Shown here piece after piece: positions 26,294 to 39,917 of a stretch of 64,000 nucleotides of DNA. Position 1 is the first letter of the stretch. Every line of letters begins with the position of its first letter. The position numbers and the translations under genes are program-made. Where the stretch lies: the NCBI RefSeq assembly GCF_933775445.1, contig NC_065874.1, positions 24,436,501-24,500,500 on the forward strand, read 5' to 3'. The notes beneath the pieces were generated by a model. It ran no database searches. It worked only from the letters and a program-made list of their open reading frames with translations, and had not been told where the DNA came from. Source of the stretch: Argentina anserina. Its lineage: Eukaryota; Streptophyta; Magnoliopsida; Rosales; Rosaceae.

Positions 26294-29085
26294 TTATTTG
26301 AAAGCCTGAAGGTCAGCATAATACTTCAGCATCCACCCTTTGATGATCCTGACTTCTGTTTTACGTTGATTGACCAACCACGCTGGATCCGTAGTGTGGT
26401 TCGCACGAAGTAAGTCCAAGCAATGCGACCCTGCATAGTAAGTTTTAGTTCTCATTAACACGAATAAGCATGAACGTTTGATTGTCAATTTGGCGTCTAC
26501 AATTATGCTAGCTAGCTATGATCAAATGCTAGTGTCGACTCTGTCGAACATAACATTCATCATAACATCATTTAAGTGTTTACAAGCATCCCATGGTAAA
26601 ACCTTTTAAGGACTCACTAGCCGCATACCCAGTTAAACTACGATAGAATCTGCTCGATGATTTTCTTACCTTTCGTTGTAGTGACTGCGAGGACAGTATC
26701 TGATATGTCGTGCAACACCCTTGATGAAAGTAAATACTTATTAGATTTGTTCGAGGGAAAGCAGGAATTGGTGAAAAGAAAAGGCAATAGAAAATGAACT
26801 GATTTGTATTTTGCTCACCCGCCACCACTGTAAGGATCTCTTAGACCATTGGAGAAGATGATGTTGCTAGCAAACCTATGAAGAGCGAGTCTGATATCCT
26901 GTTAATTTGGAAGAATTTTCAAATTTTCAGAAACCGTCAAACTATCATCAATTTTGTTCAGAATGCTTTCAGAATTTGAAAATCGATCGATCAGTTCATC
27001 ATACATGCCCGCCATAGTAGGTAGTAACCCAGTGAGGGCGAGGAGGGACACCATATTCCGCCTTGCACTCAGCTATGTACTGTTTCAGATCGAAAGGAGC
27101 AGGAGGTAACATTGTGTTGTTGTTACCATTGCCTATGGGCATCACCATTTCACTACATATCTGTATAATACAGTAATACACATGTCATGCAAACCAGTTG
27201 ATCGGTCAGTAATATATGTACATCATAATTACACGTACATTATCATATTGGGGTTCTGAATTTGAAAGCTGGGATTCTAGAACGAAAGTTCTTAGGGTTT
27301 TGCACTTACAGCTTAAGCTAGCTTCATGCGAAATTTATACATCTAGCTAGCTCTCCAGATTTGTTTTGAAGTTAAGAAAGCTATCAACAAGAATCTTTGG
27401 TTACTTGTCTTGAAATGGCTTTTTTTTCGTTATTATTTAGTTGAGCAAAACTGATGACATGTATATATGAAGTAATTAAGACAGAGTGTATGCAGTTAAT
27501 TACCTGCCATGCCCATCCCTGAACTGTTTCAAGGCTCTCACTGCCTGGCTGATAATCGTTGACATAGCATGACTTTTTTCCTTCATAAGCAACAAGACCT
27601 GCAAATATTTTGGCAAGAGTGTCTTTGCTAGAAACTCCATCGATAGCGCCACAGATTTCAGTGACCGGATATGTTGGTGGAGCATCATATTGAGCTGCCC
27701 CTATATACATGAACTCCAAATGGTCTTCGAGCTCCGACGACGAACCTAAGGGACTAATTAAATTTAACGAGAAACCAAAAGAGTATTGACAAAATGATCC
27801 AGGATTAGTAAGACTTAGTACTAACCATTCATGAAAATTTAAAGAAAACCAAATGAATATGACAAGCTGATGAAATTAGTTGTTCTACACTTGTACTCAT
27901 GAATAAATATTTTAAATTAACGTAAAAGTTAGCAACGATATGCACCTGCAAGTATGGAACTTCTTGCTGAGGACCGACAGACCATTAGGCTTGGAAGCAA
28001 TTTCCTCAATTTCAGACCAGGACTTTTTAATGGTTTGGTAGCAACTCTCACTGGTTTCCTGCAATTTAATGCATTTTATGACCTTACGGTTAGCAGTTTC
28101 TGTACTACATGTAGCGTTTTAGTAATATTGGATCGTAGAAATGGTTACTTGAAAATCTCTGCTGATAATAGAGTAGTATCCGTTTTTTCGGGAAACAATT
28201 TCATCAAAGTAAAGAATTGGAGCTGAGGAGGCAAGAGCTCCAAGAGCTACATGGGGATACTTTAGCCGAAACCATGAAGCAAGCACTGTGGACAAATCAA
28301 ACGTGCATTATCTTCATTAAACAGACACATTTGAATATTGTGACAACTATATATAGCCGGAATAATTGAAAAAGTGTACTGTATATGCAGTCACTCACTT
28401 CCACCATATGATCCACCAACAACAATGATTGGAGAATGTTCAGCATGTAGTTTCTTTTTTACATGTATGAGAATTTCTGCACAATCTGCTAGAGCTTGAG
28501 CTGAGTTGAAGTAACCAAGAGTTCTTGCATTTTTAAACGCAGTTTCCCTTGATCCGAATGGGATTGATTTACCATAGTATCGGTGCTGATGGGATAATTT
28601 AGTTAAAAATGACCATGTGTCTAAATACGTAATTCCAAAGCAAAATCTATATAATGAATATGCCAATTGTCAAACTGTCCGACAAGAAAACCGTTAAATT
28701 CTTCCATATATATGTGTTACCTCTATATATATCTGGAGAGCTTGAAACTGTTTGGCGTTATCAGGTAAGAACCCATGGAAAGATAATTCTCTATCCAACG
28801 ATTCTTCTGCACCAAGATAAGCAAATATTGGTGCACTGGTATTTGAGCCACCCCAGTGCTTGAAATTAATCAAGTATCTTTGTTGAAATGTAGCGAAGCT
28901 ATCATACCTAAAGTTGAAATGATCAAGTGTTTGTGTATAGTAGAATGTTTCTAACTCAAAAGAGTCATATGTAGACAGGGCTTGAGCAATACGTGCTCCT
29001 CTAGTTGCACTCAACCTTGGAATGTTTAAAGAAGATGATGTTGAGACTATTAAAGAAATAATTACAAGCCATAGAAATGAGCATA
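26294..29085 (-). pseudogene. Serine peptidase S28 (lysosomal Pro-X carboxypeptidase type), main part, cut off from its start codon
   Basis: Removes C-terminal residues after proline in vacuole or secretory compartments (family knowledge). Exons on the minus strand: 28721-29085, 28399-28585, 28149-28285, 27946-28058, 27504-27753, 27005-27160, 26819-26898, 26670-26719, 26294-26430. Together with the 13 unique coding bases at 39905-39917 they total 1,488 nt, exactly 496 codons including the stop, a normal family length. The catalytic triad is present: Ser in GGSYGG (the exon 2/3 junction), Asp in NGLRDPYS, His in GSHCLD. Other family blocks are TLDHFN, YLGAEES, HRYYGKS, LGYFNSAQALAD and PPRPHW. 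I see no internal stop or frameshift. The only lesion is the 10.8-kb Ty3 element inserted in the signal-peptide codons, so this is a very recent knockout or an insertion allele. Confidence 0.9.
29081..29085. repeat. Target-site duplication GCATA, left copy
   Basis: GCATA directly before the LTR start, identical to 39900-39904. On the gene strand it is TATGC, spanning codons 5 and 6 of the S28 reading frame. Confidence 0.95.
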
Positions 29086-29466
29086 TGTAATAACCCTAAA
29101 TTTCAAACAACATTTGAGTGGATTTGAATTCTTTAAAAAAATTGTGAAATTTAATTTGAATGGATGTGATTGGTTACGACGATAGGAAACGAGTAACGGA
29201 TACGTTATCGGAACGTTTAATTTGAAAAACGTTACGTTTCCGAACATTTATATCGACTTTTAATCCGTTGCTCGGTTTCGAAAACTTTCTTCACGGAAGT
29301 TGTAGAGCTCGTTGATACGAGTTCGTGGATATGTGACGCGTTCGAAACGGACATCTTACGTGAAAGTTATTCACGTCGGAAGTTAATTTCCGATTTGGAA
29401 ACTAGTATAAAAAGGAAATTTTTGTAACTAGGGTTTCCATAACAGGAAACCCTTTCTTTTCCGCCG

Positions 29467-39899: not shown

Positions 39900-39917
39900 G
39901 CATACAAGTCGTTTCAT
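39900..39917 (-). pseudogene. First six codons of the disrupted S28 gene
   Basis: On the minus strand this reads ATG AAA CGA CTT GTA TGC (M-K-R-L-V-C), of which TATGC is the duplicated target. Across the element, the frame continues SFLWLVIISLIVSTSSS at 29080 downward, forming one signal peptide. This 18-bp piece is too short to be found by reading-frame length and is recognised only from the junction. Confidence 0.9.

What the first reader, a model, noticed from the sequence alone, without database searches (positions are those of the whole stretch)
29081..39917. A young, complete Ty3 element splits codon 5/6 of an otherwise perfect S28 peptidase gene
The target duplication GCATA falls inside the signal-peptide codons. 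The start codon and six codons lie at 39900-39917 and the remaining nine exon pieces at 26294-29085. Removing the element and one target copy gives exactly 496 codons with all GT-AG junctions in phase and a complete Ser-Asp-His triad. Knockout is thus the only visible lesion, and LTR divergence of about 0.5% implies a recent event, so an intact allele may still segregate.
Basis: partly seen in the sequence, partly recalled or inferred. Interest (0 to 1): 0.75.

Follow-up and report, generated by a model that had tools for sequence, protein, structure and literature searches.

The report
Retrotransposon splits a silverweed peptidase gene
In the silverweed genome a young, complete mobile element sits inside the first codons of a protein-digesting enzyme gene, cutting it off from its own switch and start signal; the public gene model starts the same gene inside the element, so whether the gene is dead or re-wired is open and could be checked with existing public reads.

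Summary
An antisense Ty3-type element (29086-39899; LTRs 3013 and 2991 bp, 15 substitutions in 2985 aligned sites) with a 5-bp duplication GCATA lies in the signal-peptide codons of an S28 peptidase gene with nine in-phase exon pieces, 495 codons plus stop. The source is very probably Argentina (Potentilla) anserina, a tetraploid. A relative's uninterrupted exon 1 (86% identity) supports the native start at 39917.

"Knockout" is only partly supported. The public protein LOC126787304 matches the gene body at 100% but begins MVMQSQAL-GYYI: a 24-nt start exon on the antisense LTR strand, spliced to an acceptor 10 bp inside the element's edge. By a small splice profile that acceptor is the best of 150 AGs on that strand. 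Of the eight AGs nearest the gene, it alone leaves the frame open. The donor is poor and no transcript could be examined, so chimera versus null stays open.

Absence of further lesions is uninformative (about 60% expected under neutrality). The gene is an old Rosaceae paralogue; the one other copy placed in that clade is an older pseudogene. No empty site is in the held assembly. The other haplotypes are public but not held here.

The parts
29081..29085 (.). Target-site duplication GCATA, gene-body side
39900..39904 (.). Target-site duplication GCATA, promoter side
29086..32098 (+). 5' LTR, 3013 bp
32101..32112 (+). Putative primer-binding site TGGTATCAGAGC (initiator Met, recalled)
32366..36868 (+). 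Single 1500-codon gag-pol frame: gag, zinc knuckle, protease, RT, RNase H, integrase zinc-binding, weak integrase core, SH3/chromo-like
   Evidence: searched in pieces
36909..39899 (+). 3' LTR, 2991 bp
39905..39917 (-). Native start codon and codons up to the duplication (MKRLV with the duplication's bases)
   Evidence: relative P0121
39985..39994 (-). TATA-like box of the native promoter
   Evidence: motif only
28721..29083 (-). Exon 1, remainder from codon 6
28399..28585 (-). Exon 2
28149..28285 (-). Exon 3
27946..28058 (-). Exon 4
27504..27753 (-). Exon 5
27005..27160 (-). Exon 6
26819..26898 (-). Exon 7
26670..26719 (-). Exon 8
26294..26430 (-). Exon 9 with stop
29721..29744 (-). LTR-derived start exon MVMQSQAL of public protein P0001; the identical sequence is at 37550-37573 in the 3' LTR, and which copy the model uses is not known
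29086..29097 (-). Acceptor AG (29097-29096) and the 10 LTR bases that precede the duplication in P0001 (GYYI)

Best explanation
A complete Ty3-type LTR retrotransposon inserted, perhaps 0.2-0.4 million years ago, antisense into codons 5/6 of an S28 (prolylcarboxypeptidase-like) gene of Argentina anserina. It left the native promoter and ATG 10.8 kb away from the rest of the gene (shown). Most likely the gene body then became a TE-gene chimera rather than a clean null (inferred): antisense transcription of the LTR supplies a short start exon, MVMQSQAL, which splices to an acceptor 10 bp inside the element's edge. This restores the frame, with a new n-region before the old hydrophobic core of the signal peptide. 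Expression is probably low, allele-specific and dependent on silencing of the LTR (inferred).
For: Anatomy. The public protein P0001 has exactly this structure. The acceptor scores 9.0 (28 of 39 reference acceptors score lower) and is the best of 150 AGs on the antisense 5' LTR. Of eight AGs in 29084-29400 it alone leaves an open frame. P0001's donor is worse than 12 of the 18 possible phase-0 first exons in the 5' LTR, so sequence alone would have favoured others, which mildly suggests transcript support. Maximum 11-residue hydropathy is the same (3.13) for the native and chimeric N-termini. Leaf RNA-seq exists for the specimen. TE-gene transcripts with TE start sites occur at thousands of Arabidopsis loci (PMC10241880, abstract and passages).
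Against: No transcript was seen. The donor TTG|GTCTCA scores -2.4, below all 39 reference donors. Since the acceptor is the only open one nearby, a gene finder forced to find a start would pick it too. The nearest TATA-like match upstream of the start exon on that strand is at 30430, nearly 700 bp away. P0001 skips an in-frame ATG one codon upstream, at 29747. P0001 is a cluster of one, with no sequence from the lgn or ena sources. LTR/Gypsy elements were under-represented in most TE splicing events in Arabidopsis (PMC10241880).
Confidence: 0.45

Rival explanations
1. Plain null allele: the element separated promoter and start codon from the gene body, nothing translatable is made from this allele, and the public model is a prediction artefact. 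An intact allele may survive in other haplotypes.
For: The native ATG reads only 34 residues before a stop in the LTR; the left junction has no in-frame ATG, and the first in-frame Met is residue 189. Poor donor in the public model. No transcript seen.
Against: A strong in-phase acceptor at the edge and a public full-length model. Intactness of the rest does not discriminate.
Confidence: 0.42
2. The native promoter still drives the gene and the whole element is spliced out as a 10.8-kb intron, from the donor CTT|GTATGC (39906|39905) to the LTR-edge acceptor, giving MKRL-GYYI-CSF in frame.
For: Donor and acceptor are both phase 0 with the frame open; intron length 10,810; TATA-like box intact.
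Against: The donor scores 1.2, above only 1 of 39 reference donors, and 38 of 93 candidate first exons have a better one. Long intron. Not the public model.
Confidence: 0.08
3. Assembly error: the insertion is a mis-join of a retrotransposon into the gene.
For: The tetraploid was reduced to one haplotype, not fully phased.
Against: Exact 5-bp duplication and LTRs with their own private changes; published consensus quality QV 55.3; the public protein itself carries the LTR-edge residues.
Confidence: 0.02

Closest known systems
TE-gene chimeric transcripts with TE-associated start sites (Arabidopsis, PMC10241880; abstract and passages seen)
   Same: A TE inside a gene can supply an alternative start or splice site; a Gypsy example (AT2G40960) is named there.
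   Different: Here the TE interrupts the first codons, so the TE start would be the only one; no transcript was seen.
Ty3-type (Metaviridae-like, chromovirus-like) LTR retrotransposons
   Same: LTRs, 5-bp duplication, domain order protease-RT-RNase H-integrase, SH3/chromo-like tail.
   Different: Nothing outside the kind was seen. LTRs of about 3 kb are long beside a 4.8-kb internal region.
Peptidase family S28, lysosomal Pro-X carboxypeptidase (3n2z)
   Same: PF05577 over nearly the whole profile; Ser, Asp and His aligned; best PDB match E 1e-94.
   Different: Plant paralogue of unknown substrate. A 2006 survey counts seven S28 genes in Arabidopsis and says no functional information was available in plants (PMC1560137, passages).

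Membership tests
Ty3-type LTR retrotransposon | Direct LTRs with target-site duplication | tested here: met
Ty3-type LTR retrotransposon | Integrase encoded after RT/RNase H | tested here: met
   RVT_1, RNase H, then H2C2 above cut-offs. The integrase core itself is weak: E 3.7e-4, 21.1 bits against a cut-off of 32.6
Ty3-type LTR retrotransposon | Placement by an RT tree | not tested
   no RT tree was built; the clade (chromovirus) is suggested only by the SH3/chromo-like domain
S28 serine peptidase | PF05577 domain | tested here: met
   P0001 residues 63-481, E 3.5e-74
S28 serine peptidase | Ser-Asp-His triad | tested here: met
   aligned in 3n2z; catalytic identity recalled
S28 serine peptidase | Proline-specific activity | not testable with these tools
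   needs an assay
TE-gene chimeric transcript | A transcript joining TE and gene sequence | not testable with these tools
   ERR9435015 exists but reads are not held; only a protein model is
TE-gene chimeric transcript | In-phase splice sites that open the frame | tested here: met
   acceptor strong, donor weak

The most novel reading that the evidence does not exclude
This LTR family carries a strong splice acceptor on its antisense strand 10 bp from the edge (457 exact copies of that edge in the genome). Antisense insertions into exons could therefore be tolerated by splicing. Here the element that cut the start off an old Rosaceae S28 paralogue would now supply that gene's start exon, so that the last unbroken copy of the clade in this haplotype lives on only as a transposon-started gene.
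Probability: 0.25. Interest if true: 0.6.

Novelty: new member of a known kind. Interest (0 to 1): 0.42.

Why it matters
The locus offers a dated, allele-level test of whether a retrotransposon inside the first codons kills a gene or takes over its start. Assembly, alternate haplotypes, HiFi reads and RNA reads of one specimen are public, so junction reads would decide it. It also warns that a public protein record can contain transposon codons, and that the absence of further lesions after a young insertion says little about function.

Tried and rejected
Searching the own genome with the 490-residue protein did not complete twice. A PDB search with a 62-residue piece gave nothing; the whole protein then matched. 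NCBIfam gave no family. A first comparison of LTR copies left the minus-strand loci unturned and is superseded; only its Poisson figure is kept (6 of 15 LTR differences in the first 385 bp, P 0.014).

Whether S28 genes attract this LTR family was not tested: copies lie near two other S28 genes, but related LTR fragments are dense here, so chance is the simpler reading. A dN/dS test was not possible, as no nucleotides of this lineage's relatives are held. The Pfam search of the genome missed locus L039, which the exon-1 search found, so my list of S28 loci may be incomplete; the fragment at C6:32736822 was not examined.

Literature searches for an antisense LTR promoter or acceptor in plants returned mostly animal papers; one Arabidopsis paper (PMC10241880) was followed up. 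I do not claim that no precedent is in print.

Full report
What is there. The window is C3:24436501-24500500 of a 236.8-Mb assembly in 146 contigs. The gene's 490 residues match at 100% a public protein of Argentina anserina (Potentilla anserina, silverweed), LOC126787304 (P0001). Contig C5 of the held genome is 28,859,254 bases, exactly the published scaffold N50 of drPotAnse1.1. The source is therefore very probably that tetraploid specimen.

The element. The LTRs (29086-32098 and 36909-39899) start TGTAATAACC and end GTTACA. They are flanked by GCATA on both sides and differ at 15 of 2985 aligned sites plus two length differences. K is 0.0050, giving 0.19 My at 1.3e-8 and 0.36 My at 7e-9 changes per site per year (rates recalled). 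The internal region has one 1500-codon open frame with gag, zinc knuckle, protease, RT, RNase H, integrase zinc-binding and SH3/chromo-like domains in Ty3 order. The integrase core is weak (E 3.7e-4, below its cut-off). Six of the 15 LTR differences fall in the first 385 bp (P 0.014). Against 28 other copies, five of these six are changes of the 5' LTR (at four no other copy shares them, at one a single copy does) and one is private to the 3' LTR. They look like post-insertion changes, somewhat concentrated at the gene-side edge.

The gene. On the minus strand nine exon pieces and eight GT-AG introns give 490 codons, and the first five codons (MKRLV) are coded at the far side of the element from ATG 39917. 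The start has outside support. P0121, a 142-residue frame on an unnamed 851-bp contig, is 86% identical over exon 1, runs uninterrupted, and begins MKPHIGSFQWLV against MKRLVCSFLWLV, the same length. The protein is a full S28 peptidase, with Ser, Asp and His aligned to human prolylcarboxypeptidase.

Is it a knockout? From the native ATG the frame runs 34 residues into the element. At the other junction the gene's frame meets a stop in the LTR, with four open codons between that stop and codon 6; there is no ATG in those codons, and the first in-frame Met of the gene is residue 189. Yet the public protein begins MVMQSQALGYYICSFLW. MVMQSQAL is coded on the antisense strand at 29744-29721 and identically in the 3' LTR. 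GYYI is the LTR edge plus two bases of the duplication, after an AG at 29097-29096. Of the eight AGs in 29084-29400 it is the only one that leaves the frame open.

Splice scores. A profile was made from 39 introns of five S28 loci of this genome, eight of them from this gene and some from doubtful automatic alignments. On it the acceptor scores 9.0 (28 of 39 reference acceptors are lower) and is the best of 150 AGs on the antisense 5' LTR. The public donor TTG|GTCTCA scores -2.4, below all 39. The native-side donor CTT|GTATGC scores 1.2, above 1 of 39 (all). Of 93 possible phase-0 open first exons between 29156 and 40000, 18 lie in the 5' LTR and 12 of these have better donors than the public one; 38 of the 93 have better donors than the native one. 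A predictor working from sequence alone had better donors to choose, which mildly favours transcript support. Against that, the acceptor was a forced choice, an in-frame ATG one codon upstream is skipped, and no TATA-like match lies within nearly 700 bp upstream of the start exon. No transcript was seen.

What intactness tells. At 0.25% per lineage about 3.7 substitutions are expected in the coding sequence; the chance of no nonsense, splice or frameshift lesion under neutrality is about 0.60, assuming indels at 10% of substitutions. Lack of other lesions neither supports nor excludes function.

Family context. In a 30-row tree the gene is in a supported clade (100/99) of twelve rows: Rosaceae plus two rows of unnamed source. 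It is sister to the other eleven (96/95), and the second Argentina copy L039 (C3:24507k) groups with Rubus, Rosa and Fragaria (100/100) on a long branch. A smaller tree agrees with lower support (91/99, then 80/87). An exon-1 tree joins this gene to P0121 (98/93) and P0122 (98/96) but, being short, does not recover the wider clade. L039 looks like a pseudogene: compared by eye with this gene it has an altered end of exon 1 with GA in place of the donor GT and extra bases in exons 2 and 3, and its alignment needs two frameshifts. Matches to exons 6-9 lie about 12-16 kb further on, inside this window at 56384-52512, among LTR fragments; that they belong to L039 is inferred from order and strand. 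So in this haplotype neither copy placed in the clade is a normal gene. L032, L033 and L034 fall outside the clade; L035, L036 and L037 were not put in a tree.

Other alleles. The two flanks queried match once each, and exon 1 at 100% once, in the 146 contigs. Three protein searches listed no second sequence that I can assign to this species for this gene: 120 of 3804 matches shown, 74 of 74, 120 of 727. How well the database covers this species is unknown. The assembly is of one haplotype and contigs of the other three sets are deposited separately (PMC11162522: part 1 of 3 of the text and passages seen).

Generality. The edge TGTAATAACCCTAAATTT, which holds the antisense acceptor, occurs 457 times exactly (reversed control 0). 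CCCTAAATTT stands at the edge in 24 of 28 compared copies. The start exon with its donor occurs 7 times exactly, two of them in this element, and in 2 of the 28 copies.

Verdict. The sequence observation stands in the details checked. The knockout claim should be weakened to 'native start cut off; a chimeric start is annotated but unproven'. As a kind it is known (TE insertion, possible TE-gene chimera). Its value is that public reads can decide it.

Noticed in passing
window 52512-56384 (minus), with L039 (C3:24505k-24507.7k): Exons 6-9 of a second, decayed S28 copy lie in the window among LTR fragments; its exons 1-5 lie beyond the window's end.
   Followed up: partly
window 4903-5916, 21182-25463, 47497-50526, 53191-55332, 55730-58126: Further, older fragments related to the same LTR crowd the window.
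   Followed up: no
L033 625-3702 and L032 4205-5778: LTRs related to this family lie about 1 kb and 0.7 kb upstream of two other S28 genes; possibly chance.
   Followed up: no
window 29157-29386: The gene-side edge of the 5' LTR holds five of the element's 15 LTR substitutions, at four sites unique among 28 copies.
   Followed up: partly
window 30399-30640 and 38228-38439: A 28-bp tandem repeat inside the LTR differs by one unit between the two LTRs.
   Followed up: no
G000 contigs C3 and C6: Held C3 is 35,141,592 bases against 35,144,299 for the contig behind P0001, and C6 is 37,345,693 against a published longest scaffold of 37,348,946, while C5 equals the published N50 exactly.
   Followed up: no
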